Origin: Ulva prolifera
Lineage: Eukaryota; Chlorophyta; Ulvophyceae; Ulvales; Ulvaceae
Assembly: GCA_023078555.1 (NCBI GenBank)
Contig: CM041196.1
Coordinates: 6,211,658 to 6,275,657 of the forward strand
Direction of reading: 5' to 3'
Length of the DNA stretch: 64,000 bases
In this document: positions 13,860 to 61,634 of the stretch, in pieces
Numbering within the stretch: position 1 is the stretch's first letter
Layout: each line of letters starts with the position of its first letter
Position numbers and translations under genes: made by a program
Notes under the pieces: generated by a model
The model's database searches: none
The model's input: the letters and a program-made list of their open reading frames with translations, nothing else
What the model was told of the DNA's origin: nothing

Positions 13860-15417
13860 ATGTGGTCTCCACGCCTTTCCATGCTGTGCGTGCTGCTCAC
13901 GCTGGCCATCGGCGCTGCGGCGCTGCCGCCGCCGTCCCCCCGGCAGCGCGAGAGGCGCCCGAGGCACACTGTGCTCACGGTCCAGGAGGAGCCTGCGGGC
14001 GGGGCTCACCCGGCAGCGCCAGAGACGCCCGCGCAAGACGCGGACTCAGGTGGGGCTGTACAAGAGTGGGTGGAGTATGCGGGTGATGCATCGGGTGGGG
14101 CGTACATGCGGAAGCTGCTCCACGGCTGCCACCGCCGCAGGTGTGACACCCCTCCCCCCCCCCCTCCCCACGCCGGCGGCAGGCCTTGATTTGTTTTTCC
14201 TTCGGCTTCTGTCATCCTGTCAGGAGCGGCTGACTCTCAGTGTTTGACCATGGGACCCGATTGAGATCCTCCCACACCGATGCACGTAGTGTGTCATTGC
14301 TGGTTTCTGGTTAACCAGATCAGATTAACCAGGAGTTCCAACTTTAAGGTGACAGCGCCGACACGTCAAGGCAGTCACCCACCTGCACAGCCGATTCCCC
14401 TCGTGCCATTGTTCATCCAGCAGCCGCCCACGAACAGCTGCCGCGATGCATTTGTGCCTGTATGTACGTGCAAGGGTAATGTGTGCACCGCAGGTGCAGG
14501 TGTCGATCACCGGCACCCGCAGCTGGCATGCAGTGCCACTTCTCCATCATGTAACACACGCATTGCATGCATGCAGCTGCATCGGGAGGTGCCCGCGGTG
14601 CGTCTTCCCGCCCGGCAGCGACGTCGGCCACTGCCGCCGCTCCGGCCGCATCAACGCGTGCTTCCGGCGCCGCGTCGCGTGGGGCAGCACCGCCTCCGGC
14701 ACCGCGACGTTCTCCACGCTCCCCGCGCCGCCCGTGTCCCCCATGAACGACCCGGACAACGGCGACGAAGGTGACGAAGGCACGGTGCGGAACGAGGGCG
14801 ACGAGGGGAACGAGGGAGAGGAGGGTGATGAGGGGAATGAGGGAGATGAAGGGGACGAGGGGCTGCAGGACCTTGATTACGAGGGGGGGGAGGAAATCCT
14901 GGTGCCGGTGGAGAACGTTGAATATGATCTGACGTACGAGTACGACCCGGAGCTGTCGCTGGAGGACGTGCTGCCGGACGGGGTGCTCGAGATTCCGCCG
15001 CCAGGCGCGAAGGGGAAGGCCGTGGGCAGGCCGTTTGCGTTCGCGGGCGGCGCCGGCAATAGCTCGGCGGCTGAGGCGGCGGTGGAGCGGCGTGGGGGCG
15101 GGAAGGGGCGGGGGGCGTCGGTGGCGGCGCAATCGAAAGGGGAGGGGACGGAGGCGTTCGTTGAGGATGATGAGGTGAGGGCCGGGGAGGATGTTGGAGA
15201 GGGCGATGGGGATGGGGGAGATGACAGTGGTGTTGAGGGTATTGACCCTGATGTGGAGGCCGATGAAGGGGATGATGTGGAGGAGGAGGAGGAGGAGACG
15301 GATGAGGAGGACGGCAGTGATGGGGAGGGTGATAATGGGGAGGGTGGTGGCAAGGGGGGAAACGGACTGGGCGTGACCGGGCGCGGATTCAAGCTTGGGC
15401 TGCAGCGGCAGCATTGA
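13860..15417 (+). CDS. Secreted acidic protein with DEG/NEG repeats (family 2)
   Basis: Exons 13860-14140 and 14577-15417 join in phase 2, giving about 373 residues. The ATG at 13860 opens a signal peptide (core MLCVLLTLAIGAAAL). Exon 1 ends ..MRKLLHGCHRR. Exon 2 starts CIGRCPRCVFPPGSDVGHC, a small Cys cluster, followed by DEG/NEG/EEG tripeptides (about 14761-14862), LQDLDYE, YEYDP, and a very acidic Asp/Glu/Gly-rich tail ending in a basic GRGFKLGLQRQH. The gene at 19702-21148 has the same two-exon layout and the same HGCHRR, CPRC.FP, GHCR, LQDLDYE and YEYDP blocks, so they are paralogues. No named domain is recognised. Secretion is inferred from the signal peptide; acidic repeats could bind cations, but nothing proves it. 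The intron holds a C-rich tract and ends in GCATGCATGCAG. Confidence 0.75.
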
Positions 15418-19701: not shown

Positions 19702-21148
19702 GCCGCCGGGGGCCGCTTGCGATCCGCATCGCGGCCCTCCTGCACCTCCTCTGCTTAGCCAGCACAGCAGCCACAGCACGGCGGCTGCCGCACACGCAGC
19801 ATGCATCTCTGGCGCCCCACAGCATGGCTCACAGTGCAGCGTACGGCGCGCCATACAGCGGCGCCGGCTGGCCGCCGCAGCTTGGCTTTGCGGCGGAGGG
19901 AGGCAAGCATACGCGGAGCCTGCTGCATGGCTGCCACCGAAGAACGTGCGCCCCTCACCCTCACAGTGTTTGCTCGTTCAGACACCCACTAGCTCGCAAC
20001 GCCGCCGGCGGATGAGTGCCATTCCTGATCGAATTCGAATTAATGCACGTGCTTGCGGGACCTTACCCTTTTAAATGGTCCGTTAAGCATTCGGTGGCAG
20101 AAGCCAGTTGTGTTTTTGCGTGGGAGAATGCAAAAATGGTGCACAGGTAGCACATTCTGGCCGCCTGCTGCGCAACAGATCTTGCGCGAATCAGACGCAC
20201 ACCCTGACAAATAGTCCTCCGACTTGTACACCTCAGGATCACAACGCAGCACACAACGCCGGTGTGGTTGACATGCATGTACACCCGGGCTGCGCTCGGC
20301 ATGCACCCAACATCGGCGGCGAGTGCAGGTGCATGCCGCTGTGCCCGCGGTGCGCATTCCCGAAGCGCAGCCGCGGCGTCGGCCACTGCCGCGCGAACCG
20401 CGTCATCCACCCCTGCACACCACGCATCTCCACCCGCTCCCTGCAGCCCCCCCGCACAATGCCGCGCATGGAGCCTGAGGTTAGCCCCGGCATGCATGCG
20501 GACGCCCGTGGCTACAACGGCAACGAGGGAGATGAGGGGGACGAGGGGGACGAAGGCAACGAGGGGGACGAAGGGGACGAGGGCAATGAGGGTGACGAGG
20601 GTGAGGAAGGTGACGAGGGCGACGAGGGGGATGAGGGCGATGAAGGAAACGAGGGGGATGAAGGCGATGAGGGGGAGGAAGGGGATGAGGGGAATGAAGG
20701 AGATGAGGGGGACGAGGGGCTGCAGGACCTGGACTATGAACCGAGTGCATTCTTCGCGGCGGCAGATGTGAACTATGACATGGGGTATGAGTATGACCCA
20801 GATGTCGTGTTTACAGACTTGGACGGGAACGAAGGCGATGAGGGTGGCGATTGGCACGATCAGGACGGGCAGGACGAAAGCGCCGCAGGGGATTCGGGTG
20901 ACAAGGGCTACACAGGGAACGAGGGGGGCGGCAGGGGGAGTGATGAACATGGTGGCGACGAGGCGGGCGGAGGCAATGCTGGGGTTGTCGGTGAGGAAAT
21001 AGACACCAGCCACAGAGCCTTCATGCTGCGCCGGGAGGAACGGCGCAGAAGCGTTGACAGCCATGCACTGCAGGCGGCAGATGGCGGCCATACGGGCGGC
21101 TACGGGTACGGGGACGGTGCGCCAGACGGTCTGCCGGGCCTCCGATGA
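19702..21148 (+). CDS. Secreted acidic protein with long DEG repeat tract (family 2 paralogue)
   Basis: Exon 1 ends at 19945 and exon 2 is 20329-21148; phases agree. Exon 1 encodes a hydrophobic signal-like segment (AIRIAALLHLLCLASTAATA at 19719-19778), then ..HTRSLLHGCHRR. No in-frame ATG lies between the upstream stop near 19635 and this segment, so the true start is in an unseen upstream exon or a start I cannot place; the left coordinate is approximate. Exon 2 starts CMPLCPRCAFPKRSRGVGHC. It then carries 22 uninterrupted tripeptides of the form NEG, DEG or EEG (20522-20719), LQDLDYE, YEYDPD, a second short NEGDEG group, and a Gly-rich end with basic RREERRR. It is a paralogue of the gene at 13860-15417. 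Function unknown; an extracellular acidic protein is inferred. Confidence 0.65.
20522..20719 (+). repeat. 9-bp minisatellite coding 22 (N/D/E)EG tripeptides
   Basis: The unit is RAY-GAR-GGN (Asn or Asp, Glu, Gly) with three GAG/GAA-GAG variants giving EEG. All 22 units are in frame with no interruption. Shorter versions of the same unit lie in the three other secreted-protein genes (about 4850-5100 minus strand, 14761-14862 and 27298-27540). Confidence 0.9.
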
Positions 21149-27149: not shown

Positions 27150-28703
27150 ATGGTATCTGTGGAATGTAGGATCTACGCAGTTGCTACCCTTGGAGTGGCG
27201 GTCGTCGGCTCCTTCGCCACCCAGCCAGCCTCCGCCGCCGTCGCCACCGGCTCCTCCGCATCCGCCCGTGACCTCCTGTTCAAGGTCAAGACACCTGAAA
27301 ACGAGGGCGATGAGGGCGATGAGGGCAACGAGGGCCTCGACAACCTCCGCAGCGGCATGTTTGCGATGATGACCACCACCGAAGGCAGCGAGGGTGACGA
27401 GGGCGACGAGGGCAACGAGGGGGACGAGGGCGACGAGGGCGATGAGGGGGGCGCACCCGTCCCGGTTGACGATAACAACGAAGGCGACGAGGGCGATGAG
27501 GGCGATGAGGGGAATGAAGGTGATGAAGGTGGCGAGGTGATCAGGACCACTGGGTCCACGTTCTCTCAGGTGTACTGTGCGAGCAAAGCAACGGCGGACA
27601 GCTTCACCGTGTCTCGCAGCGCACACGTCGTGGCAACTGTCGAGGCGGTCGCCGATGCATGCGCGCCCGACTTTGACGGCAGCACGGTAAAGATCGAGAA
27701 GCTGTACTACGACGCCGGCCTCGTCATCGCGGACGCGTTCGCGGACTCGCAGGCGGCATGCGTGTCCGCCGGCAACGCGTTTGGCTGCGCGTCCGCGTCC
27801 GCAACGGCGACGGCGTGGGCGCAGGCGACCGCCGAGGCACACGCGACGGCCTACGCGCAGGCGATCGACGAGTGCGTGTGCCTGAAGACCAACGCCGGGA
27901 CCCTCGCGATCGGCGTCGCGTCGACGTTTGTGGAGCTGGTGGCCGACGCGTTTGCGCGCGCGGAGGTGACGGCGTGCGCGAGCGGCGACGCCGAGGCGTA
28001 CGCCAAGGCCTGGACGTCCTGCTCTGCAAGCGCCTACGCCCGCGTCTGGACTCAGGTGCGCACCCGGCGGGATTGAAGTGTGCTGCGTGCATGCCGTGCG
28101 TGTACACCGACGGCTGCTGCACCTCGGCGCGCTCGTGTGCACGCTTTCGACGCGCTGCGCGTCCATGCATGCGCGGTCATGTGCGGCGGGGAGGTGGCCA
28201 CTTCCCCACGGCCTCACCGTGCGGGGCTCGTCGTGGATTCCGTCACGTGCACCGCCCGTTGGACTGGTGCGCTGTGGCATGGGTATCAGCAACATGGGGT
28301 ATGGCGCGGGCCTCCGGGCGAGCGTGTTGGTGCTACAGCTGATGGGCAGCGCATGGCGCGTGCCTGCGGGCGGCGCAGGATGCTGCCGCACCGCCGCGAC
28401 TCTGTGCATGGAGCCGCCGCTGCGATGCGCGCAACGGCGGTGTGTTCACCGACATCAAGTAAACAAAACGCCATGGGGCGTGAGCCGTGTGTCCCGCGCG
28501 TGCAGGCACTCGCGTCTGCGATGGTGAGCGCAGACTGCTTCGCGGAGGCCTCCACCTCCATCATCGCCGCCACCAAGTCCGAGTTCACCGTCATCGAGGG
28601 CTGCCAGCGGTTCGATGAGTCCCTCGGGGATGCCTCCGGCTCCACCGACGGCTCCACCGCCGAGGGCGTACGCTCCCCCCTGCCTCGCCCCCTGCCCAGC
28701 TGA
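27150..28703 (+). CDS. Secreted Ala/Cys-rich protein with NEG/DEG repeats (family 1 paralogue)
   Basis: Exons 27150-28055 and 28506-28703 join in phase 0 (WTQ then ALASAM), giving 367 residues. The ATG at 27150 starts a signal peptide (VATLGVAVVGSFATQPASA). Two blocks of NEG/DEG tripeptides follow (about residues 50-65 and 75-130), then an Ala-rich domain with Cys at AACVSAGNAFGCA, ECVCL, TACASGD and SCSASA. Exon 2 carries SADCF and TVIEGCQRFD and ends in a Pro/Arg tail. Domain order, intron position and Cys spacing match the gene at 3630-5346. The Ala-rich part alternates small residues with Cys and is likely helical. No named family recognised; extracellular location inferred. A paralogue pair 22 kb apart on opposite strands implies inverted duplication or independent insertion. 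Confidence 0.78.
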
Positions 28704-35340: not shown

Positions 35341-38300
35341 ATGTCTTCGTGGGATCATTCGAGTTCGTCACGATGGATCGGTTTGAATCAATCAACATCG
35401 GGAGGCGGAATCCAGCCTCAAAGCGATTCAGCATGGCCACCGTACCGGCTCCCATCCGAACATACGCATGGTACAGCGCATATGGCGAATTCAGGGTCTA
35501 CAGAGCCTGTCAGTCGATCAGGCCTTGCGCTACAGCCGTTCTCCCGTTCTGAAGGGGTCGTAGTCAGCAAGAAAACATGTCCAGTGGCTCCTGGACTGTC
35601 GTTCCAGTCCACCAGCTCACGTGTGCCCGTTCCTACACCTCTCCAGTCCTCAAGCGCCTACAATGCTAATCAGGGCAGCTTCGAAACGGGTGCTTCACGC
35701 AAACATAGCTTTGATGAAAGCTCGGCCAAGAGTGACCTGTACCACATGGCACACCTCGACTTTCCAAAGACCTGGGTGCACCTATGGGACAGAGCCCCTC
35801 TACGCGAATCCGAGACGTTCCTTTCAACGGTGCTTCTCACCTGCTGCCTTCAAATCCAGCAGCTTGTTTGCCTACCGCTGTCCTTGTGCAACTCTGCCAT
35901 CAGTATGCCCTGTGACATGTTCCATTCCTGGTAGCAAGCAGTTTGTTTTGGGGGACCAGCCAAGATGCGCGAACAACGCATGATGCACTGCAGGACCATT
36001 CCCTGGAGATGCTGGTACATTCATCTGCATTTAATACGATTCGTCTGGTTGCCGCTGAGAACAGAGACGTGGTTCCAATGCTTGCAATCAGCTGCAGCGA
36101 AGATGTTGTCACCAATCGTGTCTGTATTTCAATATATGGCGAGTCTTTCCAAGGAAACGGCAAAGAGCCGTTCAAGGTTGACAGCTTCGTCAGACTGCGA
36201 AAGACACCTGCACCTCATTACAGCGTGCGCTTCCTATGCTGCCAGCGCTGCTTCAATTCCTTGATCGTCTGTCAGCCTGTTTCAAATGCAGCTGAGGCTG
36301 TAGATGTCAATTTTCGGTGCTATCACCTTCCTCGAGTTTTTCTCTATTCAATGAACCACTCGGTCATATAGACATGCCATCAATGGATCGCTGGCCGCAC
36401 GAGCTGTTCAACATTCCATGCGTCAGGAAGTATCATGTCGATGCAGTCGCAGCGTTTATTGTATTTTGGAATTGGGTGTTGTAGTGGAAAGGATGGCATG
36501 CAGGACGAGCGGACAACTGTCAACGGTCTGGCAGCATCGTTTCAGGCAGCTTGTAACACATCTTCTACATTGAGGATGTGCCACGTGCTACCGCTTGTTC
36601 TCACAGCGGCTCCTGCACAGCCAGAGGCCAACAGTGAGGCAGCCCCTGATGGGTCCCCTGGTGCTGTCCTCTCAGGCATGCTGCTGCAGCCGGCTGCACC
36701 ACTGAAGCTCACACAGCTGAACCGCATGCGGGTGCTGGAGAGCATGTTGTCGGCAAGGCTCATGCAACCAGCAGCATACATGGGTGCTTCAGGCGATGCC
36801 TTCAGAACCGGCCTCCTGAGCATTGAACAGAGCCGGGAGCTTGTGCCATTGCTGCACAGCGATCCAATGGTGTGGTCCTGACTCCTGTTTTTTGTCCTTC
36901 AGCCATTGCTGCTGTGTAGGACCCATCACGCCGGAGGTAGTTCAACGATTCTCGGGACTGTCGTGCAGCTATGTGCATTGTGGCAGTGCAGGCCCTGGCC
37001 GCAGGCGATAGGGCAAGACTACATGTTGGCTGTTTTGTACAGTATGATCAACACTGTCTTGCCAATGTGCTAGCGCATTGCTGTGAGTTGCTCCATGCAC
37101 ACCATGGAAGAGTGTCCCCATAGTAGGTCTACTGCCGCTCATTGACATGTCCAAGGCAAGCCACCGTGTGTAGGCGGAGCGTGCGCCGCTGGTCGGCGTC
37201 TGGGTGGCCGGTGTCACCAAAGTGTGGCACCCATTCACGGTGGCTGCTGCGATGGCATTTCATGCCCATGCTTCCAACCGCCGCTGCAAGGCGGTGGCCC
37301 CAGATGGGTCCTTCCTGCTTCTCGTCTTCCCCTCTGGCACAGGCAGCCGCCAGCCTGACCTCTTTGAGGCTTTTGTGGACGCCCCCCATGGCTTGCCCTT
37401 GCTTCCCCACGACATCTCCCTGGAGGTGCCAGCTGGGGCCCCACACGAGCAGCGCAGTGGTGACGCTGCTGCCAGCAGGATCCCCTCCCCCCATGCCAGT
37501 AGCGTCCCGCAGGAGGTGCTTGTGGCAGCACTTGTTGAGCGGTCCACCCTTACGCACTGCCTGTCGAGCACGAGCAGCACGCCCGCCGCTGCTCCTCCTC
37601 CAGCCACGTCCGCGGCGGAGGGCAGCCGGGGCAGTTCGCCAGGTCCAGCTGGCCGATGTGCCACTGGCGCCATATCAGCGATGGCCGGCGCGCGGACGTC
37701 GCTCGCAACATGGCAGAGTGACCCGCCCCTGAGCGTACCGCCAGCAAAGCAGGGCGCTACACATCAGCCCGTGCCTGCCGTGCCTGCGCAAGGGGCCCCG
37801 GCAGCAGCGTCAGGCAGCAGCGGGCGCAGCTCGTCTATGTCTCAAGTGGGCTCCCGGGCAACGTCTCGGAGCGCGCTGGCGGCGTGGAGCCGAGAGTTTG
37901 CGCCGCACGGTCAGGGTGCCGGAAGCGGCTTGCGCACCGGCACTCCAGTCGGTGATGCCGCCCCGGCAGTGGGCCCCCGGGGCCACAGCTACAGCCAGAA
38001 CCTGGTGACGCCGCGCCTGCCAGGCTTCCATCCTGCTGCCCCGCAGCCGCATCAGCCTGCAGGGACTCACCTGGCCGCGCCCTCGGCCCGCGGCGGCATG
38101 CCGGTCGTTCCTGCGCCCTCGCCAATGGTCGCAAACTCTCTCCACGGTTACACGCAGCAGGGAAGGCCGGATCTCGGCCAGGGTGCCCCGACTTCGGTGA
38201 AAGATCCGGACGTACGTCGCATTACCGCGCGGTGGGGTGCAATGCCTGCAGCGTCTGTGACCGGTACCGGCCCGCTGTCCCTGGGCTCACTGCCACCGGT

Positions 38301-41300
38301 GGGTGCGACGCCCTCGCAATTCACAGCCGCTTCTGCCGTGGGGGGTGCTGGCCATGCAGCTATGAGAAGTGAGTGCACCACGGCTTTGCTGCCGCCACCG
38401 CGGGACGCCGCAGGTGGCGTGGCTGGCTGCGAGGATGCGGTGGCAGCAACGGCCGCGCCACTGCCGGCCAGCGCCTTACCGCCTGGAATGCCTGAGTGGC
38501 TCACCAGCGCGGTCGGGCGGCACCCGGAGCTAGCAGTGCTGCTGGAGCGCAACAACATAGAGCAAGCGGCAGATGACGCAGCTGAACCTGTGGGTGAGCA
38601 GGTGGAAAATAGTGCGGCTAGGGAGCCTGTGGCAGGTCAGCCCAAAGTAGAGGATGATGCTGGTCAGGATTGCGGACGGCAGGACCCATCACGGGCGGCC
38701 ATCAAGCGGCAGCGGGACGGTGACGAGGGCCACCGCAGCGGAGATGAACCGGGTGGGGGTGGTGCGGCAGCCGACGATGCGGACACTGCTGTGCTCGCTG
38801 CGCTGCTGGACGGCGATGCTGGGAGCAACGCAGCGGAGGGGGAGGCTGAGATGGACGGCTCGCTGCATGCTGCGCTTGCCCCGGGGGGCATGTCCGAGGC
38901 TGAGCTGGCTGCCATGGCCACGCGGTCGCCCTCGCATGCGAGCCCAGTGCGACGGCCTGCAGACGGGACTGGGGTTGCCTCTACGAGGATGCCAGCGGAG
39001 CAGAAGGCGGTTTCTATCGGGGCTGAGGCCACTGCGCAAGCGACGGAGCAGCCGGTGGTTCAGGGGGAGTCGCAGGAGTACCCTTTGACACCGCGGCACC
39101 CTCGCGGTCCATCTGAGCCGCACCGAGCTGTGAAGAGCCCCCGCGTCTGCCCGGCGGCACTGGGAGGCCACCCCGGACCGTTTCATGATGATCGCAGTGT
39201 GGCCGGTGCGCAGCCACCGGCAACGGCTGTTGGCGTGCCAGCTGTGGGGCAGGCGGTACCTGGAGCGGTCATGCATGCCAGCGCGTCGGAGGCTCTATCA
39301 CACTTGATGCCGATGCCGGCGCTGCAGTGCGCCGATCCGGAGGCTTTGGCGGCGCTAGCACCGCTGTATTCATACATCTCCCGCCTGCAGCGCCACATCG
39401 AGGTGCTGCAGGCTCAGCTGCACACCGGCCATGTGCCGCCGCTGCCGCATGTACAGGCGCAGCTTGTCCAGAGACTACAAGCGGGAGGGCTTCAACCTGG
39501 ACTCGCGACAGCACCGTTCCCGGGCGCGACGTGTGCTGTCCCCCACACTGCAGCGGCAAACCCCACTGCTCCAGATAGCCCCCCTGCCATGCAGCCGGCC
39601 TCGATTGTGACTGGTGCATCCGCATTAGCAGGTCCACATCAGAGGCGCGTGACTTCCAGCGCGGCGGCTGACAGCACAGGCGCGTCGCCAGTACAGCATG
39701 CATTCAAGGTAGTCCGTGCGTCAGGGCGCCACTCAGCGGTCTCGCCGTCTGTCGACCCTCTACAAGCGCATGGTGAAGGTGCGGGTGGCGATGGTACTGG
39801 GGGCCAACGTGACGGAACACGACGGCCACAGCAGCAAGAACAGCGCCTTTCCCCTGAGCGCCGTGGACGGCGTGCAGACCGCTTGCGCGACTCCCTTGAG
39901 GCAGCAGCCGCCAGTTTCCTGATGCCCGGGCATGATGCGTCGGAGCAGGCACCGGCGAGCAGGCCGGCTGCAGCCGGCGAGGCTCTCAGCGATCAATATG
40001 GGCGTAGACCTGCACGACGTGAGGGTGCAGCGCAGCAAGCGCAGCGGGACGGTGCTTCGTTGCACCACCTTTCACAGGCAGCACATGAAGGCAGCGAACG
40101 GAGTGAGATTCTGGCGTCGTGGCCGGCACAGCGGGAGCTGTTGGGACCTGGTCACCAATCACGGGCCTCCAGCCGGGCGCCGTCGCGGCAGCTGACCGGC
40201 GCGATGTTCGGAGGCAGCCCTGACAAGGTGTTTTCGACGGATGAGCTGAAGGCGGCCGTCGCCGCTGCAGAGGCTGCGGCGGAAGCGGCGGGGGGCGGGA
40301 GCGCGGTCCCGTCAGGGCGGGCCGCGATGAGCGAGGATGTTGCCGATGCAATTGTCGACAGCTTCCTCGTGGCTTCCCACTCCCCGACCCGCAGCCCCGG
40401 CAAGGTCGACCGGCGGAGGTCCGACACGGCGGCGGGCCGTGGGGCCGTGGTGCGCACATCGCTTTCTTCAAAGCGCCGCACTGACGTTCGCCCCTCGGCA
40501 GAAGAGGCGGACTGGGACACTGCGGCTGGGGGTGCCGCAGAGCACACAGATGACACTGCGCGCGCTCATCAGTCAACGCATGGGCGGGGTCGGGATGGCG
40601 GCGGTGGTCAGGGGTCGCCGGCGCTGCTGCGGCGGCGGCGGCCGGGCCGGAGGGAGGAAGCGACTGGGGCGAGGTCTCGGGTCGAGCCTGCACCTGTAGC
40701 CGCGGCCGCATCGGCGCTGGATGCGTCGAGCGTGTGTCCTGAGACGGAGGCCCCGAGTACCCCTGCTGCGCTATCTCATGGGCGGACTCAAGGAGGCAGC
40801 ACAGCCTCTGTGGCGGCCCGCGGGGACCGCGCCCCGCACGGCGGCCGTTCGCCCGGCTGTATTCCGGTACGGCAGCTCGTGATGGTTTCATGTCTGCTGG
40901 TGTTGCTGCTATGAGGAAACGTTTCAACAGCGTTTCTCAGGATTGTTACCCATACGTGTGCATGGATGTCATGTATGTTGTGGTGCAGGACAATCGGAGG
41001 GCGTCCACAAGCGACCGCGGCAGAGCCACCTGCCTCTCGCCAGAGCTGGCCGCACTCATCGCGGATGCGGCAGTGGAGCACTGCACATCTGGCGCTCCAC
41101 CTGCGGCACGTCCTACCAGTCGTGCGCTCGTCTGTGTTGCTGGGGAAGACACGGCGCACCGTCACACACGGGGCGAACACGAGCTGCATGCCCCGGCGGC
41201 TGAGGGGCTGAATCACCGGCCGCCATCACGGTGGGCGCTGTCGTCACAGCATGCAGGCGCCGCGCCCATGCAAGGCATGCATGGGCTGGAGGGGGGTGGT

Positions 41301-41919
41301 GGCTATTATGGCTCTGCGTGGGCGCCATGGTCGACTGCAACCGGTTCGACACTGGGGGCTCTGCCGCTGGCGCATCACATGGCCGGTCCACCCCGCGTGA
41401 TGCCAGAAATCCCGCGGATAAAGTTCCCAGAGACAAAGGCAGGGAGAAGGATCCAGCGCAGGTGTGGGGCGCAGGGGTCTCATGCTGTTGCTGCTGTGTG
41501 AAGTGCTGCCCAGGCACTGGTGCCAGGCGGCGACTGGCGATGTCTAGGCTGGTAAATGGCTTTCCGAAAAGCTGATGTTGAATTTGGCTTCGGTGGCAGC
41601 ATCACACTCGGCTCCCCCAGTTCTGTGCGGAAGGGGTAAAGCTGCTGTGGGTCGACGCTGATCTGGTGCACCCATATATCACATCACATCATATGCATTC
41701 ACACTTGACTTGGGAGCTGGTGTTTACGATATGTATAGTAAATCTACTGACTTTACACGGACTCATCTCATCAGGCCACCGTGTCTCAGTCTGGTATTGG
41801 TGCTGTCCAGGTATCTCAGGAAGAAGGGGCAGGCAGTGGATACCAGCACGTCGGCGTCAGCCAGCGATGACACCGACAGTGACGATGACAAGCTGGAGCG
41901 CAAGTATGGAGTGCGGTGA
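35341..41919 (+). CDS. STIL: STIL/SAS-5/Ana2 homologue, centriole duplication factor
   Basis: Proposed exons: 35341-35829, 35994-36224, about 36372-36460 (borders unsure), 36546-36869, 37174-40878, 40989-41461 and 41811-41919, about 1,800 residues. The firm joins keep phase. The N-terminal block follows animal STIL in order: FPKTWVHLWDRAP, NTIRLVAAE, PHELFNIPC, then GLLSIEQSRELVPLLHSDPM joined to AERAPLVGVWVAGVTKVW and GSFLLLVFPSGTGSRQPDLF. Human STIL has GYLTMDETRK, LLESDPK and PLVGIWLSGI at the matching places. A long Ser/Pro/Ala/Gly-rich middle contains YSYISRLQRHIEVLQAQLH, positioned like the short STIL coiled coil. After the last join the C-terminus reads IQRRYLRKKGQAVDTSTSAS then DDTDSDDD, like the STAN motif (ATxKYLxRYG and acidic run). 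STIL binds PLK4 and recruits SAS-6 to start procentriole assembly. This fits an organism with basal bodies. The middle has diverged entirely. Confidence 0.83.
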
Positions 41920-42302: not shown

Positions 42303-42399
42303 GGATCACTTTGACTACTGCTGGTCCATACTGCTCATAAATCGCATCTTGGAATCACTTTGACTGCTGCTGGTGCATACTGCTCATAAATTGCGTCTT
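42303..42399. repeat. 48/49-bp tandem duplication
   Basis: Two copies start GGATCACTTTGACTACTGCT and GGAATCACTTTGACTGCTGC and both end in ATACTGCTCATAAATYGCRT CTT. They differ by one inserted base and a few substitutions. Confidence 0.9.
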
Positions 42400-43405
42400 G
42401 TGATGTCGGGAAAGACAGAATCATGTGTCCCACTTCCTGTTAATGCTGGTCCCAAGTGGAGTGGAGTCATTGATGCCATCATGTGGTTTCGCTTGTGCAT
42501 GTGATGTGTCAGAGGAGGCGCTGGTAGTATTTCATGAGTCAAGAGATTCGTTTGGACAAACTGGGTCTAGTGACCAATACCTGTTTTTGTGGTACAACTG
42601 CCTGTCGCAAACATGCTTGAGGGCTTGTGGCAAGCCTCTATGTGTTCGTCGAAAGGATTGTCCAGATATACCAAATGGATCATTGCTTGATGGACACTAA
42701 AATGTTTGTGTCTCTGCAAGCTATATCACAATCTGTGACTGGATGTGCTGCAATGCGGATGTGCCGCAGAGAAGTGGACTCGCTGCCAACTTCTGTCAAC
42801 AATGTGCTTGCTGCTGCATTCCTGAACCTGGGCTATTTGCTACGTACGCAGCAGTGTATTTGCAAATCTCAATCAGTCGAGAATGCCCAAGACTTTCATT
42901 GCCGCAGTCACATGCGCAACAAAGATAACGATCATCAGGTTTTGTAGGACAGGGAAGCTTTCAACTGTGAACTTGAACAGTGAGATGCACATGATGCACA
43001 CAGCACGCTGAAGGTACTTGACTAACACCGATTTCTGTCTGTACGTGGGAAGCTTTGTCACATGTGTGCAAGAATTAAGACGACCACGCAATCGATGTTG
43101 AGTGACGATTGCGCTGCATCTACCACCACCGCGTACTTAATATAAGCTAACGTTCTCGACCTCAGATGGGTTTGGGTGATGTGCATACCATGATGTGCAT
43201 CATTCTTTGTAAAGAATCTGGCAATCATATATTGTTACTTGCCACACATGACGCTATCTTGCTGATGCTGTTACCAAACCATATGATCACAATGCAGAGC
43301 CTGTGCTCCAAACCGTCCTACATAATCCATGGGCACGGATGTAATCGAATGGGTTTGATTTGTCTTGGTTTCATGAGTGTGTGTCAGGTATGACTGAGGA
43401 ACGCC

Positions 43406-44266: not shown

Positions 44267-47200
44267 TCAGAATCGGTGGTTTTTGACAGGGTTTGGGCAG
44301 GACGCGGCGACAGGCGCGTTGTGGCGTCGCGCCTTCCACGTGCCCTGCGCCAGCTCCTCGTCCAGGTCACACGCAAGTCTACTCATGAACACGTTCCATT
44401 GAGCCTCGGACAGACCCGAGAAAACATAGTTCGCCTTATCCGGATGGACGGCCTCGAGAAGCGGCGGGTACACACTCGTCTGTGCACCCTGCCGCCGCCC
44501 CTCCCACACGGTCCGCCGCAGGCCCCCCGACCGCCCTGGCCGCGCCTCCGACGGCGCTGACATCAGCGCTGGCGGCATGCAGAGCTCGTGGCTCGCAAAC
44601 TCCTCCCCATCCCCCGCCGAGCCGCCAGCAACCGGCGTCTCTGCCTCGCTACGCAGCCCCGCAAACGCAGCCGCACCCCACTCGCTCGTGTCTGTGCCGG
44701 ACGAGGCCAGGGGCGCGGTGCACAGCCACGACGGCTCCACCGCCCGCGGCTCCGATGCGGCCATGCATGGGCTCTCTGAGCTCGCGCCGTCATCGCCGTC
44801 GCCGCCGGCGGCTGGGAGGCGTTGTGGTGAGGAGTCACTGCAGATGCCGAGGGAGTCGCCGAGGCCGGACATTGCGAGGGAGCCACTCTGCGCGGCGTCG
44901 CCGTCAAACTGGCTGAACAGCGGCGCAGAAAGGCCGCTGCTGACGAGGGCCCCCGACTGCAGCGCCGCCTCGCGGGCGTCCATGCACAGCGCCTCGAAAT
45001 CGCTCGGGGCGCTGTCCATGGGGCGGGTCATCATAGCTGCCATCTCGAACAGCGTCAGCCCCGCCGCAACGCCCTTTTTCAACACCTGCATCACGGTCGC
45101 CATGAGACATTGATTGCAACCGGCCTCACCAAAACTCAGAATGAGAAGGATTCCGAAATGCCTCTATAAAGCAATCTGATACTGGACCCACATCGTGGTC
45201 CTCTGCACAATCGCAAATGCTACAATAGGACAGCCTTGTGCAAATACACGCAACAATACTGCACACACTCGGGACTGTATTGCATGTCACTGCGCCTACA
45301 GAGTTGCACACATTACAATACACATGCAGAAACAGTTCTTGCAGCACAACTGCATGGGCACAGAGAGGAGCGCACCATCGTGGTGACCATGAGGCAGCGG
45401 AGGCTTTCGGGACGGAGCTCTGGGAGGCGGCGCGCGAGCATCGCCGCGTCGGCTGCGCCGTCAAGCCGCGCCACATACGCCTTCACCTCATCACTGAACG
45501 GCACACTTGCCTGCGGCCAGTACTGCCACTCAAAGTACGGGTTGTGCAGGGCCTCTGGCAGCGCGTAGCCGTGATCGATCGGCACGAGGGCGTGCAGCGC
45601 CGGCCCCGCGGTCGACTCGATGCCGAGCCGCGCGCAGCTACGTGACACATCGAGCACGAGGAGGTTGCCCGCGTGGCGGTCGAGGTTCAGCAGCCGCAGG
45701 TCCAGCACGCCGATGCGGTGCACACTGGCGGAGCAATACCGCGACGGCGCGACGTCGTTTGCGTCGCTCTCGTGCGCCGCAAACGCCTGCAGCGACCCGA
45801 GCTTCAGACCGCCCGGGGGAACAGGGGCCATCAGGCGCTGGTCCGGCGCCGCGCTGAAAAAGTCCGGCAGCCCGTCGCTCCCCAGAGATCCAACGCACGC
45901 AGCGCCGGTGTCGCTGGTGTCGCCGCTCACTGCACCATACGAGAGCGCGGAGTGCCGCATCGAGACGAGACACGCCGGCGGGACGCCTGCAAAGCCTTCG
46001 TGGTCGATGAGGTATGCGGCGACCTCCCGGAGCGCAGCTTCGCCGACGCGGACGCCAGGCTTCATGCCGGGATCGCCCATCGCGCGGCCCGACCAGCCCT
46101 TCGGGTTGTTCGGCGCCATCGGCTCCTCGTCGCACGGTTTGAAGATGCCGACCTTGGTGCCGGAGGGGTCGCTGACGAAGTAGGTGCCCCCCATGCCCTC
46201 GCGGGGGACCTCCGGTACGCGGCCTGCCTTGAGCCCCGCCGCGGCGCGGGAAAGCATCGCAGCAGCCTGCACAGCACAGCTACCGATGATTCACTGGTGG
46301 AAATTCATCATGCGCTGCTGGAAATTTTCGTATGAACGACACCACACCAAGATGGATCCATCCACACAGCGATAGACCGAGCGTCACATCGAGGTCAAGC
46401 ATAAACAAAGATGCACCGAGAGACGAAACCATCCCCAAAGCAACAAGGTAGCACCACAGTGAGGTCAACACAGAGTTTGCATGGATATGGCACCTCATAA
46501 CTGGCAGACTATTGTGGCAAGCATATGGGCATGCCTCATCTCGCCGCTATGTGCTCCGCATACAACAGGCACTGCTCCCGATACCACATGCCACCAGTCA
46601 TGGGCCATGCGCCAAGCAATTGAGGAGGGATGGTCCGCACCGCCCGGTCATCGCGAGTGCCCCGGACCGCTTCCAGGTGTGGCTCGCAGGACATCACAGC
46701 CGGGCCGTCCTTGCTCTGAATGCGCAGAGCACTGGGCACAGCCCGCAGTGCAGGCGGCTGGATCCGTGCCTCGCCCGTCCCGGGCGAAGACAAGTCCGTG
46801 GACTCCCCGCCGGGGGCGAGGTTGAAACCCATCTGGGTGCGGACAGGCTGTGAGATGGAGCTGTTGCGGTGAAGTCCACTCCTGCCGGGCAGACTCGGCG
46901 AGTCGATGCTGCCCACGACGGAAAGATGTACCGAGCCGAGCTGTGCGGACAGGAGGCTGATGGAGCCCCTGCGCATGCTTGAGCCAGAGCGCTGCCTGGG
47001 TGGATCCAGGCCTTCCTCGTCGCTGGTTTCAGCCATATCTGCCCACGGCTGTGACAATTCTGCAGCGCTGAGCGTCTGCCATGGTTCTCTAGTGGACGGC
47101 GGAGGTGCCTGTGGCGCAGTCGGAGAGGGGTCTGTGTCGGGAATCAGGGAAAGCCCTGGTGGGAGGTTGCTCAACTCGAATTGACCTGCTTCAGGCGCGT

Positions 47201-56400: not shown

Positions 56401-59400
56401 GTGAATAAACGTGTAATTCTCCTAGCCAGTGCCCATGCGTATGTGGCGGTGCATCATTAGCGGCGGTTGCGTCTGAGGCTCTGAGCACAGGGCACACGTC
56501 ACACGTGCCGATGCAGAACATGCACCGAGTCCATGCAAGTACTCCGCAAACACATGCATTCAACACCATCAAGAGTGCAGAGGGCACTTCATGCCAGCAT
56601 CCCACAGCAATCTAAACAACCCAGGCTCCAACAGCAGCCCGTGCCTACCAAGATTGATACACGGTGCAGGGTGGTGGGGCATGTGGCCGTCGGCGAGGAG
56701 CTGGTGTGGTCACAGGCGGCGACGCTGCGTGTGGTGTGGCGCGCGCTGGTGGACGAGGCGCGCACGCCGCCGTCGCCCGCTGCGCCCCGCACCTCCGGCG
56801 TCATGCTGCAGCGCCTGCTGTACAGCCACGCCCAGCACCAGCAGGCCATCCCGGAGGCCGCATCCAACATGGTCGCCTCGCTGCTTGTGGCGCAGGTGCA
56901 CTCGCTCACCGCCGAGCAGGTGCGATCACCACACCCGGCACTCAATGCCCCTTGTGGCGGCTCCTACCAGAATTCTGCTGCAGTAATGTGTAAGCACCGT
57001 TGCGGTCCTGGTACCACCGCAGGGTATGTGGCATGCTGGTGTGCCCAGCATGAGCATATCGCAGTCAATTCTGTGTGACAACGTACATAACAACGCGCAT
57101 GCGGAAATCCTCAGGCCTGCCTGCTCCCCACCAGTGTTGGGTCGCTTTACAGCATTTTCAGGGCTGCCACCCAAAAAATAGACCTGGATGTTGGGAATTG
57201 TTCTATGTGATCGGGCCCGATGACCCAACACTGCTCCCCATGCCGTGCATTGAGGCATGCAAGCTCGGTGCACGTATCAGCGCGGTGGTCTGCGCGGGTG
57301 GATCGCCGAACTACAGCGGTGACGCGCTGCGTCGCTGTGCAGCTGTCGCACACGATCTGGGCGCTCGGGCGGCTGCGGCTGCGGCACGCGGGCCTCGTCG
57401 CCGCGCTGATGCAGGCGACCCGGCGGCACCTTGGCTCGCTGCAAGCGGAGCAGCTCGCGCACATCCTCTCTAGCCTCGCGATTCTTGCCGTGAACGACTC
57501 ATGGCTTGTGCGCGCGCTCGGCACGGCGATGCTGAACCGGCTGCACCAGGGTGCGGGGCTGCGCGTCGCGCTCGCGGTGCAGGCGCTGAAGGCTCTCGCT
57601 GAGGTGCGCTGCTCCTCACACTGGCCTCGTCTGCGGCATCATGATCCGGGGTGTCTGAGAATCCGTTTCTGCGTGATCCGTGCCGACCGTGCTCTGCATG
57701 CCAAAGGAGTCTAGCAGATTTCTTCCTTTGCTGGCACATTCGAAGATCTTACACATTCCCGCAAATCAGAGAATCCGTACAGACATGACCCATTGGGATA
57801 TCGTGTGTGATAACTACTCCACCTATCAAATGCACTTGCCTCGACCATAGTGCAGCGGCTATGTAATCATGCATGCGTAGGGCAGCGCTGCGCTGGCATC
57901 ACTCCCTTCCCAGGCTTAGACACGCTCAGGCACCGGCCCGGCGCGCTTGTGTTCTTCCATGCATGACAAGGGCAAAGGTTGGAGCGAGCAAGGTGCTGCA
58001 TGTGCCACTGTCACAGTGTGACGCCCCCACCTGCTGCAGTACCGCGAGGGCCACCCGCAGCTGGTGGCGGCTTTACACCACCGCGTCACGCACGCCACGG
58101 GCGGCGGCGTGCCGAGGCCGCGGCGGCTTGCGCCACACCTCCTCGCCGACCTCGCGGCCGCCGTTGGCGACCTGCACACGTACTGCGGCGCGGCGCTCGC
58201 GCCCGTGCCGCACGTCCTTGCCCTGACCACCCAGGCCGTCACCGAGGCAGTCTGTGCGCTCTCCCCCCTCTGACCTACAGATACTCTCTGAGTCAAAGGC
58301 AGCACACCAACATCTGACAGATGACGTTGGATTGACTGACTGACTGAAATTGACTTGTTTCATGTCACGAATCATCGGCGACTGACATTTTATACACTTT
58401 GGTCGGTGGCTTGCAGCGGGCGGGCGCACGGAGTTTGTGGCGGAGGATCTCGACAAGATTCGCCACTTCTGCGTAGCCACCGGCGCCCGCGAGCTCCTCC
58501 CAGACGTCATGCTGCTCCTCAAAAACGTGGCTTCCGCTCCCCCTTCCGCCCCCACCGACGCCGTGCGCCCGCGGCAGCACCGCAGCGTGGAGGATTACCT
58601 CAGCAGCTCCCGTGGCCAGCAGGTCCGCCGTGAGCACGAGACGATGCCGATGCATAGTCGCCCGCTCGGGTTCCAGGACGATGCGTCGTTTGTGGTGGCC
58701 CCCCGGCCGGGCGGTGACCCCCGCCGGGTGGACGCCACGGTGTTGCCAGACAAGCCGGCTGTGAAACCGGTGGTTGTATCAGTCGGTCGCGTGCCGACAC
58801 CGGCGCCGCCGCGGGTGCAGGCGCCGGGGCGTCCGAAGGGTGCCCGTGCGGCGGGCCCGCAGGTGCCGCCGACGGGCACGGTCGACACGCGCCCCAAGCG
58901 CGCACAGGGTGCGGACAGCACGCAGGCAGCCGTGCCGGAGATCCGGGGTGCGCCGGCCCGGCCAGCGCAGGCGGCGCCTGTGTTGGCGCAGGTGCCGAGA
59001 GCAGCGGTGGCGGCGCAGCGCGCGGGCGATATGCATGAGACACATGCACCTGCGGCCAGCCGCGAAGCTGGGAGCGGAAAGAAGCTCAACACTCGGGACC
59101 TGAAGCCACGGAAGATCTTAGACCCTGACGCAATTCACATAGTCGAGGAGTTCCACAAACTCATGCATAGCCACACGCATGGGGGGAAGTACGCAGAGGC
59201 AGAATCTGGCGCTGCTGCGGCTGAAGAGACCGTCGCAGCTGACCCCAGCGTGCATGTACAGCATGCACAGCAGTCAGCAGCGGCACCGGACACAAGTGTT
59301 CTGGACTTTGATGAGGCGCAGGTGGCTGAGGAGGCGCTACAGGCGCTGCACCACCCGGCAGCGCAGCATGCGCACCATGATTCACCCGCCGGCGCATCGG

Positions 59401-61634
59401 GCCCTGTGAAGGTGCATCCTATAAAGCGTGCCGCGCCGCTTAAATCCCGCCCAGAGCACCGCGGCACTCCAGAGGCGGAGGCGATTTCACAGGCCGACAT
59501 TGACGCAGCGGCCGCAGAGTTTGCGTTTGCGGGCGTGGGTGCGGAGAAGGCGCAGACTGCTGCGATTCCGGGGCAACAGCAGCAGCCTGGTGCGGTGGAG
59601 GAGGCGCTAGAGGCTGCTCTGCTCGCGCCAGTGGCGGGCGGCTCATCGTGGCTTGACGAAATCAAGAGGCAGACCCGGGCCGACAAGCCCAAGGGGAAGA
59701 AGAAGGGTAAGAAGGCACAGGGTGGCACGGAGCCCGCGGCGGAGGCCCCAGCGCAGAGCGCAGCCGCGGAGCATGTGGCCGCCGGGGTGACGGCGGCAGC
59801 CGTGGAAGCTGCGGAGAAGGCGGAGCGGCAGGCGGCGAAGGCGGCGAAGGCGCGCCGGCGGCAGGCAGCGCGGCCCGGTGACCGGGCGTCTGCGGTGGCT
59901 GCAGTGATGAAGGCCGTCGATGCCGCGACGCCGGGAGATGCCGCCGGCGCTGCGGTGGGGACCACAGAGCCTGCTGAAGGTGGGGCAGCTGAGAAGGCGG
60001 AGGCTTCACGGGTGGAGGCTGGCACGGCGGCAGGTGCTAAGAGACGTGGCGGGGCCGTGGCTGCGGCGGAGGGGCTTCGGTCGCATCCCATCGATGCCAT
60101 CAGGAGTGTCGGCAGCGGCGCTCGTGGCCCGGCGGAGACTCCCGAAGCGGCAGCTACAACAAAGGCGGCTGCTGAAGCCATGGCATCTGGACGGGTGGCG
60201 GGAGAAGCTGCTGCAGCTGAGGAGGCTGATGCAAAAGCAGCGGCTGACGCGACTGCGGCAGCAGAAGCAGCTGCAGCAGAGAAGGCTGCTAGAGAGGAGG
60301 AGGTGGCTGCAGCTGCGAAGCAGGCTGCTGTGGATGCTAAGGCGGCAGCGGTGGATAAACTGCAAGTCGCGATGAATCAGCAGGCTGGCAGGCTAGACGT
60401 GTTCGCTGAGAAGGGTGCCATCAATGCAGCGGCGATTGAGCAGGCTGCTCTGCAAGCAGCGGCCGCAAAGAGGACGGCCGGGCGAGCGGCGGCCGCAGAA
60501 CAGGCCGTCATGCAAGCTGCAGCCGTGCAGAGGATGGCTGTAGCGGCAGCAGCAGCAAACAGGGCCGCTGTGAAAGCCGCAGCGGCAGAACGGGCAGGTG
60601 CGGCTGCGGCCGCTGATCAGCAGGCAGCAGCAAAGGCAGACGCCGATCAGAAAGCCGCTGAAGAGGCAGCAGCCGCAAAGAGAGCAGAAGTGAAAGCGGC
60701 TGAGGCCCAGCGTGCTGCGGCAGAGGCCGCCGCCGCGGACGGGGCCAAGGCCGCTGAGGAGGCAGCGGCAGAAGAGAGGGCACGCGAGAAAGCGGCTGCG
60801 GCGCAGCGATTTGCTGCAGAGGCCGCCGCCGCGGACGGGGCCAAGGCCGCTGAGGAGGCAGCGGCAGAAGAGAGGGCACGCGAGAAAGCGGCTGCGGCGC
60901 AGCGATTTGCTGCAGAGGCCGCCGCCGCAGACAAGGCCAAGGCCGCTGAGGAGGCAGCGGCAGAAGAGAGGGCACGCGAGAAAGCGGCCGCGGCTCAGCG
61001 ATTTGCTGCAAAGGCCGCTGCCGCAGACAAGGCCAAGGCTGCGGAGGAGGCAACGCAGCGGGAAGCAGCGCGCCGCCAGCTGGAGGACCAGCCGCAGGCA
61101 GTCGAGTGCGAGGTCATCACCGATGAGCAGTTCTCGCAGGCCCAGCGGCGTTGGGACGACGCCGAAACGCCGGCCATGGAGCAGCACGCCCAGCATGCTC
61201 AGCACGGGGAAGTCGGCGATGGTGACCAGGGAGTGTGGGTTGATGTCGCGCAGATGATGTGGGACCTCGCAGAGGAGGACCCGGAAGTTCACGCTGTGCT
61301 ACAGGAGATGGCAGGGGAGGACGGTGAGATCCCCCCTGAGGCGCTGGAGTTCATCGCGCAGGGTTTGATGGCGGAGGACGAAGTGCCTGCTTTCGGCGGG
61401 GCGCAGGGGCGGCCACGCTCCCATGGGAGCGGGAGCGGCGGAAAGCCGGGGAGGGGGCCTGGACGGGGGTTCGGAGGGGGGGCGCAGAAGCGTGGTGGGT
61501 CGCGGAAGCGCGCGCGGCAGGCCGCGCAGCGCATGGCAGAGGGGGTTGTTGAGGTTGAGAGCGTGGTAGAGGAGCGTAATGGGGGCCATGGGGGCGGCTG
61601 GGAGCATCCGCTACCCCCTGGCCTGAAGTTGTGA
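53443..61634 (+). CDS. Large helical-repeat protein (OPR/FASTK-like) with Ala-rich coiled tail
   Basis: Exons with agreeing phases: 53443-53578, 53750-53895, 54390-54594, 54862-55245, 55512 to about 55700 (3' border open), 55970-56262, 56670-56919, 57343-57603, 58040-58253 and 58417-61634. The first exon is not placed. The first ~700 residues are helical hairpins such as LSHTIWALGRLRLRHAGLVA and AEQLAHILSSLAILAVNDSW, the 'WALGRL' style seen in OPR and FASTK-type organellar RNA-binding proteins. The last exon alone codes 1,072 residues: a folded start (EDLDKIRHFCVATGARELLP), a Pro/Ala linker, then a very long Ala/Glu/Lys/Arg region predicted by eye to be helical or coiled, including 96-bp tandem repeats. 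It ends with an acidic patch, a Gly/Arg stretch and GGSRKRARQ. The OPR/FASTK assignment is inference from repeat style; no RAP domain or catalytic site is seen. Introns carry two hAT-like MITEs. Confidence 0.7.
54273..54365 (-). mobile_element. hAT-like MITE, 93 bp, with 8-bp target duplication
   Basis: It starts CAGTGTCGGCCCGAGCGCAT and ends GCGACCCAACACTG. It is flanked by CTGCTGAT (54265-54272) and CTGCTGAC (54366-54373), 7 of 8 bases alike. It aligns in reverse with the element at 57132-57233 (shared CATAGAACAATTC, CAGGTC, GCGACCCAACACTG). It lies in the intron 53896-54389 of the helical-repeat gene. CAGTGTTGGG ends and 8-bp duplications are typical of the hAT superfamily; at under 110 bp it has no coding capacity and depends on a transposase elsewhere. 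Confidence 0.8.
57132..57233 (+). mobile_element. hAT-like MITE, 102 bp, with 8-bp target duplication
   Basis: The ends are CAGTGTTGGGTC and GACCCAACACTG, a perfect 12-bp terminal inverted repeat. Flanks are CTCCCCAC (57124-57131) and CTCCCCAT (57234-57241), 7 of 8 alike. Inside, ATCGGGCCCGAT (57210-57221) is a palindrome also found at 9902 and 9933. It lies in the intron 56920-57342 of the helical-repeat gene and is the best-preserved copy in the window. Confidence 0.85.
60735..61022 (+). repeat. Three 96-bp in-frame tandem repeats
   Basis: Units begin at 60735, 60831 and 60927 (GCGGAC or GCAGAC), and a partial fourth begins at 61023. Each codes 32 residues containing AKAAEEAAAEERAREKAAAA and QRFAA. 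The units are almost identical at DNA level, synonymous sites included. Looser copies lie upstream (60670-60734). Ala/Glu/Lys periodicity suggests one long charged helix. Confidence 0.92.

What the first reader, a model, noticed from the sequence alone, without database searches (positions are those of the whole stretch)
35341..41919. STIL/SAS-5 homologue with STIL_N block and STAN-like C-terminus in a non-animal genome
Seen: in exon order the predicted protein has FPKTWVHLWDRAP, NTIRLVAAE, ELFNIPC, GLLSIEQSRELVPLLHSDPM, then APLVGVWVAGVTKVW and GSFLLLVFPSG, and at the very end QRRYLRKKGQAVD with a DDTDSDDD run. Known: animal STIL has these elements in the same order (LTMDETRKLLLLLESDPK, PLVGIWLSGI, a short coiled coil, and the C-terminal STAN motif ATxKYLxRYG). 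The join at 36869/37174 restores the exact residue spacing seen in human STIL. Inference: this alga uses a true STIL with PLK4-like and SAS-6 partners, and the ~1,000-residue middle has been replaced by low-complexity sequence. STIL is usually discussed for animals, so a full green-lineage gene model would be useful.
Basis: partly seen in the sequence, partly recalled or inferred. Interest (0 to 1): 0.8.

Follow-up and report, generated by a model that had tools for sequence, protein, structure and literature searches.

The report
Centriole-builder gene STIL in green alga
This stretch of a green alga's genome holds a divergent relative of STIL, a protein studied mainly in animals that helps start new centrioles, and it sits in a genome where the animal kinase that controls STIL could not be found.

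Summary
The gene is real and is a STIL homologue. A seven-exon model (35341-41919, 1,817 residues) joins exons at 36869/37174 so that Pfam STIL_N scores 52-53.5 bits (cut-off 27; E down to 2.5e-14). The only PDB match of its N-terminal part is the Trichoplax STIL N-terminal domain (E 6e-9). STIL_N hits the 88.9-Mb genome once.

The certain homology is to the second half of that domain. The first half (FPKTW, TIRL, NIPC anchors) is invisible to profiles, but the anchors in order are matched by only 0-3 of 1000 shuffles. I placed a coiled coil (39364-39426) that resembles part of human STIL-CC (1 of 200 shuffles as good) and keeps the critical leucine L736. The STAN claim is only suggestive (7 of 500), without S1116 and T1119. 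The CPAP-binding PRxxPxP motif is absent from the modelled protein.

The same genome has a Chlamydomonas-like SAS-6 and a CPAP TCP domain. No PLK4 polo box was found, so the 'PLK4-like partner' is not supported. Best reading: a green-lineage STIL scaffolding SAS-6 and CPAP, probably without PLK4. Novelty is modest: a divergent member of a known family in an informative place.

The parts
35341..35829 (+). exon 1: ATG start, Ser-rich leader, then FPKTWVHLWDRAP (STIL NTD subdomain 1 anchor)
   Evidence: open frame, donor acg|GTGCTT phase 0; anchor supported only by the ordered-segment test
35994..36270 (+). exon 2 (3' end uncertain; donors from 36118 to 36300 possible): NTIRLVAAE, counterpart of human TIRL(64)AYR(67)
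   Evidence: acceptor TGCACTGCAG at 35993; alternatives enumerated; L64 kept, R67 is Ala
36372..36460 (+). exon 3 (both ends uncertain): HELFNIPC, counterpart of human GDFLIPC
36546..36869 (+). exon 4 (5' end uncertain): first part of the conserved STIL NTD subdomain 2 block, ends ...LLHSDPM
   Evidence: STIL_N profile from about 181-183 when joined to exon 5; no family when alone; donor atg|GTGTGG
37174..40866 (+). exon 5: PLVGVWVAGVTKVW... end of the STIL NTD, then a long Ala/Pro/Gly/Ser-rich, presumably disordered region with an embedded coiled coil
   Evidence: STIL_N 28.5 bits for its first 287 bases; 1231 codons without stop, longer than in any of 500 dinucleotide shuffles (max 898)
37477..37494 (+). 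RIPSPH, a CR2-like peptide in the right place but not the PRxxPxP consensus
   Evidence: 0 PRxxPxP in the modelled protein; similarity not beyond chance over residues 471-1100 (172 of 500)
39364..39426 (+). central coiled coil LYSYISRLQRHIEVLQAQLHT, candidate STIL-CC
   Evidence: best heptad score among 21-residue windows without Pro and with at most one Gly; best ungapped local match to human STIL-CC, 1 of 200 shuffles as good; 5 of 8 core positions keep a hydrophobic or aromatic residue, L736 kept; no PDB hit by itself
40989..41461 (+). exon 6: linker with CLSPELAALIADAAVEH (possible, unproven counterpart of the S1061 part of STAN)
   Evidence: acceptor GTGGTGCAG, phase 0; the STAN N half is not beyond chance and its best local match lies elsewhere, at residue 473 (175 of 200)
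41811..41919 (+). exon 7: (R)YLRKKGQAVD + DDTDSDDD run, stop TGA; STAN-like end
   Evidence: acceptor GTGCTGTCCAG; 7 of 500 and 8 of 500 shuffles as good

Best explanation
The locus encodes a STIL/Ana2/SAS-5 homologue of a green alga, the only one found in its genome. Shown: a STIL-type N-terminal domain (its second subdomain clearly, its first weakly), a long low-complexity region, a short central coiled coil with the leucine pattern of STIL-CC, and a basic-then-acidic STAN-like tail, in the animal order, in a genome that also encodes SAS-6 and a CPAP-type TCP domain. Inferred: the protein works as the cartwheel-initiation scaffold. [quoted passage not shown] Because no PLK4 polo box was found and the STAN residues S1116 and T1119 needed in human cells are not kept, recruitment and switching are probably done by something other than PLK4. 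The confidence given is for the STIL identity; I would give the scaffold role about 0.7 and the PLK4-free part about 0.5.
For: STIL_N 51.9-53.5 bits, E 7.7e-14 to 2.5e-14, cut-off 27; the only PDB match up to E 10 is 5OI9, Trichoplax STIL NTD, 38.8 bits, E 6.2e-9; one genome-wide STIL_N place (24.9 bits, below cut-off because exons are scored apart). A 49-residue block is 18/49 identical to human and 20/49 to Trichoplax, against 25/49 for human-Trichoplax. Ordered subdomain 1 anchors: 0-3 of 1000 shuffles as good, over 3 of the 36 splice variants. Coiled coil. SAS-6_N 90.4 bits, nearest solved chains include C. reinhardtii SAS-6; TCP domain 45.4 bits, nearest solved chains CPAP/Sas-4. PLK4_PB1/PB2: none, in line with a review's statement on Chlamydomonas (PMC4888484).
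Against: Subdomain 1 gives no profile match, a human+Trichoplax model scored it below many shuffles, and plain local alignment gave 292-352 of 500 shuffles as good (48-95 of 500 when both were cut to the FP..IPC part). For the full 32-residue human STIL-CC without gaps the best placements are elsewhere (residues 334 and 1137), and the coiled coil finds no PDB chain. STAN N half, full STAN C half, CR2 and CR4/TIM are not beyond chance; no PRxxPxP and no KEN box. No transcript, no algal orthologue and no functional data were available; exon 2/3 borders are not settled. Absence of PLK4 rests on six-frame, exon-by-exon searches without a positive control.
Confidence: 0.85

Rival explanations
1. 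A STIL homologue that has kept only the N-terminal domain and perhaps the coiled coil; the rest is unrelated low-complexity sequence, and the protein no longer binds SAS-6 or CPAP through STAN and CR2.
For: CR2 (154 and 175 of 200; 172 of 500) and the STAN N half (175 of 200) are not beyond chance, CR4/TIM is not found (210 of 500), PRxxPxP is absent, S1116 and T1119 are not kept.
Against: The tail pattern (basic YxxKxG-like, then acidic run, at the very C-terminus) beats all but 7 of 500 shuffles; SAS-6 and CPAP are both in the genome.
Confidence: 0.3
2. A shared N-terminal fold only (the STIL NTD resembles the N-terminal domain of ATG7), in a protein with another function.
For: The paper on the STIL NTD structure reports its global similarity to the ATG7 N-terminal domain (PMC5928214, passage).
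Against: The match is by sequence to STIL_N and to STIL 5OI9; no other Pfam family except MoaC at E 0.28 in 2 of 7 variants, and no other PDB chain up to E 10; domain order and partners fit STIL.
Confidence: 0.06
3. Animal DNA in the assembly, or a recent transfer of an animal STIL gene.
For: The STIL papers listed are nearly all about animals.
Against: The gene lies inside a 12.7-Mb contig; alga-Trichoplax identity (20/49) and alga-human (18/49) are below human-Trichoplax (25/49) in the best block, so neither animal sequence tested is close.
Confidence: 0.04
4. Two neighbouring genes joined by the model: a STIL_N gene and a separate downstream gene for the C-terminal exons.
For: Exon 5 to 6 and 6 to 7 joins rest on splice signals and open frames only.
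Against: One open frame carries the NTD end and the coiled coil (37174-40866), so any such split could only remove exons 6-7.
Confidence: 0.1

Closest known systems
Vertebrate STIL (SIL, MCPH7)
   Same: STIL_N domain, exact spacing across SDP..PLVG, central coiled coil sharing LQAQ, disordered linkers, basic/acidic C-terminal stretch
   Different: no PRxxPxP (CR2), no KEN box, no detectable CR4/TIM, STAN residues S1116 and T1119 not kept, coiled coil seems about one heptad shorter, R67 of the CEP85 face is Ala
Trichoplax STIL (PDB 5OI9/5OID)
   Same: only PDB chain matched; 20/49 identity in the core block
   Different: subdomain 1 not recognisable by profile in the alga
Drosophila Ana2 and C. 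elegans SAS-5
   Same: coiled coil plus C-terminal SAS-6-binding end in the general plan
   Different: the Ana2 paper says Ana2 lacks CR1 (PMC4471874), whereas the alga has that domain and lacks a clear CR2; in this respect the alga is nearer to vertebrate STIL than the fly is
Chlamydomonas SAS-6/BLD12 pathway
   Same: same SAS-6 type, no PLK4 found
   Different: the 2016 Chlamydomonas review lists SAS6, SAS4, BLD10 and others as present; STIL is not named in the passages seen (its one 'stil' match is the word 'still'; PMC4888484)

Membership tests
STIL/Ana2/SAS-5 | STIL_N / CR1 N-terminal domain | tested here: met
   52-53.5 bits over cut-off 27, profile 181-285 of 404; PDB 5OI9 E 6.2e-9. Subdomain 1 only by ordered anchors, not by profile
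STIL/Ana2/SAS-5 | central coiled coil of the STIL-CC type (sequence) | tested here: met
   best heptad window, 1 of 200 shuffles as similar in the best ungapped stretch, 5 of 8 core positions kept; full-length placement not best there
STIL/Ana2/SAS-5 | coiled coil self-associates and binds PLK4 PB3 | not testable with these tools
   needs biophysics
STIL/Ana2/SAS-5 | STAN motif binding SAS-6, with S1061, S1116, T1119 | tested here: inconclusive
   tail similarity 7 of 500 and 8 of 500 shuffles, core 35 of 200, N half 175 of 200, longer C half 166 of 200; S1116 and T1119 positions are R and Q
STIL/Ana2/SAS-5 | CR2 PRxxPxP motif for the CPAP TCP domain | tested here: not met
   0 matches in the modelled protein; C. 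elegans SAS-5 is also reported to have no unambiguous one (PMC3776556), so it does not exclude membership
STIL/Ana2/SAS-5 | CR4/TIM at the C-terminus | tested here: not met
   recalled human tail, 210 of 500 shuffles as good; a further exon beyond 41919 is not excluded
STIL/Ana2/SAS-5 | partners SAS-6 and CPAP/SAS-4 in the genome | tested here: met
STIL/Ana2/SAS-5 | PLK4 in the genome | tested here: inconclusive
   no Plk4_PB1/PB2 match, POLO_box only below cut-off in a C5orf34 homologue; no positive control
STIL/Ana2/SAS-5 | needed for centriole formation | not testable with these tools
   needs localisation and knock-out

The most novel reading that the evidence does not exclude
STIL is older than its animal controller: the SAS-6/STIL/CPAP module was already in place in the ancestor of animals and green algae, and PLK4 was added later on the animal side. 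In this alga STIL is switched without PLK4, possibly through another polo-box-like protein such as the C5orf34 homologue found here, with the coiled coil as the old docking site.
Probability: 0.35. Interest if true: 0.75.

Novelty: new member of a known kind. Interest (0 to 1): 0.55.

Why it matters
PLK4 phosphorylating STIL is the described trigger for making one new centriole (PMC4220463, passages), but papers seen describe PLK4 as confined to metazoans (PMC10425847) or perhaps to opisthokonts (PMC4819266). A green alga with STIL, SAS-6 and CPAP and no visible PLK4 would let one ask what STIL did before PLK4, and which STIL parts (N-terminal domain, coiled coil) are the old core. The N-terminal domain, reported missing from fly Ana2, would then be ancestral rather than a later addition.

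Tried and rejected
Species identity by 18S rRNA: five requests got no answer; I used PsaF and SAS-6 instead. Relatives in viral contigs and genome contigs: 9 and 217 pattern hits, 0 confirmed by tblastn. PDB search with the CR2-like peptide and with the coiled coil: 0 hits each. Global alignment of FP..IPC gave 0-1 of 500 shuffles as good over 5 variants but is biased, because I cut both sequences at the anchors; I do not rely on it. A human+Trichoplax profile of subdomain 1 failed. CEP85 coiled coil: 18.5 bits, below cut-off, also rings in 4 of 14 control genomes, so taken as chance; RTTN_N: none, nothing rang in the controls. CR4/TIM, KEN box and PRxxPxP: not found. Papers joining C5orf34 and polo-box: 0.
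Full report
What was checked. The window lies in an 88.9-Mb genome of 44 contigs, on a 12.7-Mb contig. The quoted peptides are all present. I enumerated splice sites and built the model 35341-35829, 35994-36270, 36372-36460, 36546-36869, 37174-40866, 40989-41461, 41811-41919: 5,454 bases with the stop, 1,817 residues, no internal stop. All six introns are GT..AG, 85-349 bases. Thirty-six combinations for introns 2 and 3 were made; of the nine intron-2 choices shown with the first intron-3 choice, two carry an internal stop. The borders between about 36118 and 36545 are therefore not settled; the outer exons and the 36869/37174 join do not depend on them.

Is it STIL? Pfam STIL_N was the only family over a cut-off, at 51.9-52.2 bits in 7 of 7 splice variants (cut-off 27), matching profile positions about 183-284 of 404, and 53.5 bits (E 2.5e-14) for an exon 4-5 fragment; a hand-typed reversal gave nothing. 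In 2 of the 7 variants MoaC appears at E 0.28, which I take as chance. The exon piece from 37174 alone gives 28.5 bits and exon 36546-36869 alone nothing, so the join adds about 24 bits. Against solved structures the algal N-terminal part has one match up to E 10: 5OI9, 38.8 bits, E 6.2e-9; PMC5928214 (passages read) identifies 5OI9 as the Trichoplax STIL N-terminal domain, built of two subdomains. The algal match lies in its second half. In 49 ungapped columns the alga shares 18 with human and 20 with Trichoplax, human and Trichoplax share 25, all three 13. Local alignment of this part to human scored 129 against a maximum of 37 in 500 shuffles. A six-frame search of the whole genome gave one STIL_N place, this one, at 24.9 bits (E 2.8e-4), under the cut-off because exons are scored apart.

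The first half of the domain. No profile sees it: 0 families for two versions of exons 1-3, and a two-sequence human+Trichoplax model scored -2.8 to -3.2 bits over 5 variants where shuffles reached 5.8. Plain local alignment was also not significant: 292-352 of 500 shuffles as good for the whole upstream part, 48-95 of 500 for the FP..IPC part, over 4 variants. However, the conserved segments FPPSKCALWNPTP, TEKTIRLAYRHA and GDFLIPCKV, placed in order, score 50-51 against shuffle means of 21-25; 1-2 of 1000 shuffles are as good over 3 variants, and 0-3 of 1000 when the CFLLGSL..DRFDPGR segment is added. The TIRL anchor falls on human L64, a residue at the CEP85 interface; the second one, R67, is Ala in the alga.

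The coiled coil. Among 21-residue windows without proline and with at most one glycine, the best heptad score in the whole protein is at residues 1124-1144, LYSYISRLQRHIEVLQAQLHT, 39364-39426. Human STIL-CC (letters confirmed by PDB 4YYP, and by the wild-type peptide printed in PMC4830966) has its best ungapped local match there, 18 residues, score 38, reached by 1 of 200 locally shuffled versions. Against this: when all 32 residues are placed without gaps the best places are residues 334 and 1137 (same call), and the algal stretch finds no PDB chain up to E 10. PMC4830966 (passages) names eight core residues; opposite L718, F725, L726, L733, L736, I740, L743, L744 the alga has A, Y, I, I, L, L, G, H, so five keep a hydrophobic or aromatic residue and the helix seems to end about a heptad earlier. 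L736, whose change to Glu shared the null phenotype in that paper, is kept.

CR2, STAN and tail. PRxxPxP occurs nowhere in the modelled protein. RIPSPH at 37477 lies where CR2 should be and resembles human IPSPH (42 of 500 shuffles of residues 471-560, 172 of 500 over 471-1100; the 4LD3 CR2 chain gave 154 and 175 of 200), so it is a lead only. The C-terminal RRYLRKKGQAVDTSTSASASDDTDSDDDKLE aligns with the recalled human [31 protein letters not shown]; 7 of 500 and 8 of 500 shuffles do as well, and the acidic run helps. The short core alone is matched by 35 of 200 shuffles; the longer C half (166 of 200) and the N half (175 of 200) of STAN have their best ungapped matches elsewhere in the protein. 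PMC4220463 (passages) found S1061, S1116 and T1119 needed for SAS-6 binding; the algal positions opposite S1116 and T1119 are R and Q, while an LSPE in exon 6 could stand for S1061 but has no statistical support. No CR4/TIM similarity and no KEN box were found.

Middle region. Exon 5 is open for 1,231 codons, more than in any of 500 dinucleotide shuffles (mean longest run 305, max 898). Ala, Pro, Gly, Ser, Thr, Asp, Glu, Arg and Gln make up 77-81% of two tested stretches. PMC4830966 describes human STIL as generally disordered too, so nothing needs to have been 'replaced'.

Partners. SAS-6_N: one place, 90.4 bits; the nearest solved chains include 3Q0X, named as C. reinhardtii SAS-6 in PMC4471874, at 174.7 bits against 72.9 for zebrafish SAS-6 2Y3W. 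TCP repeats of CPAP: three neighbouring matches on contig C8, best 45.4 bits (one control genome rang, below cut-off), nearest solved chains CPAP and Sas-4, 86.8 bits. Plk4_PB1 and Plk4_PB2: no match; POLO_box: one place at 17.8 bits, below cut-off, which turned out to be a C5orf34 homologue, its three Pfam domains each over cut-off in neighbouring open frames. None of the polo-box searches had a positive control, and genes are searched exon by exon, so PLK4 is 'not found', not 'absent'. PMC4888484 (passages) says Chlamydomonas has no PLK4, CEP152 or CEP192 by sequence; PMC10425847 (passages) says PLK4/ZYG-1 drives centriole assembly only in metazoans, and that STIL tends to be missed in orthology searches because it diverges fast.

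Which organism. PsaF, pieced from three exons, is nearest to green algal photosystem I chains (best 6jo5, 262.6 bits; that 6jo5 and the next entries are green algal is recalled). With the SAS-6 result this makes it a green alga, probably a chlorophyte; I could not name the species.

How it most likely works. Shown: sequence, order of domains, presence of SAS-6 and CPAP. Inferred from animal work: oligomerisation by the coiled coil, SAS-6 contact by the tail, docking by the N-terminal domain. Least certain: how it is recruited and switched if PLK4 is truly missing.

Novelty. In the searches run (capped listings, in some of which 'stil' also matched 'still', plus passages of 15 papers, none read whole) I saw no description of a green algal STIL gene. 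Against novelty: PMC4554922 (passage) states that the five core C. [quoted passage not shown] the library holds only open-licence papers, the 2010 comparative papers were not seen, and sequence databases may already carry automatic STIL_N labels for algae. So this is a new member of a known family, useful because of where it sits.

Noticed in passing
L008 (G000:C3:806000-815999), minus strand; POLO_box place C3:811085-811225: A C5orf34 homologue in an alga: three C5orf34 Pfam domains (43.9, 46.9, 31.9 bits) in three neighbouring open frames; its N-terminal domain also gives a weak polo-box score. A polo-box-like protein in a genome where no PLK4 was found.
   Followed up: partly
4928-4974, 14794-14862, 20523-20718, 27380-27450: Four minisatellites built on a related 9-base unit (CGAGGGCGA-like, one written on the other strand), all inside open frames of 230 codons or more; one frame (20108-21145) scores as collagen repeat.
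   Followed up: no
60654-61052: A 96-base unit repeated 4.2 times inside a 1,065-codon open frame (58437-61634); no Pfam family up to E 0.01.
   Followed up: no
42305-42400: A 49-base tandem duplication about 0.4 kb downstream of the STIL gene.
   Followed up: no
45316-46272 minus strand: PI3/PI4-kinase domain in an open frame, 110 bits, about 3.4 kb downstream of the STIL gene.
   Followed up: no
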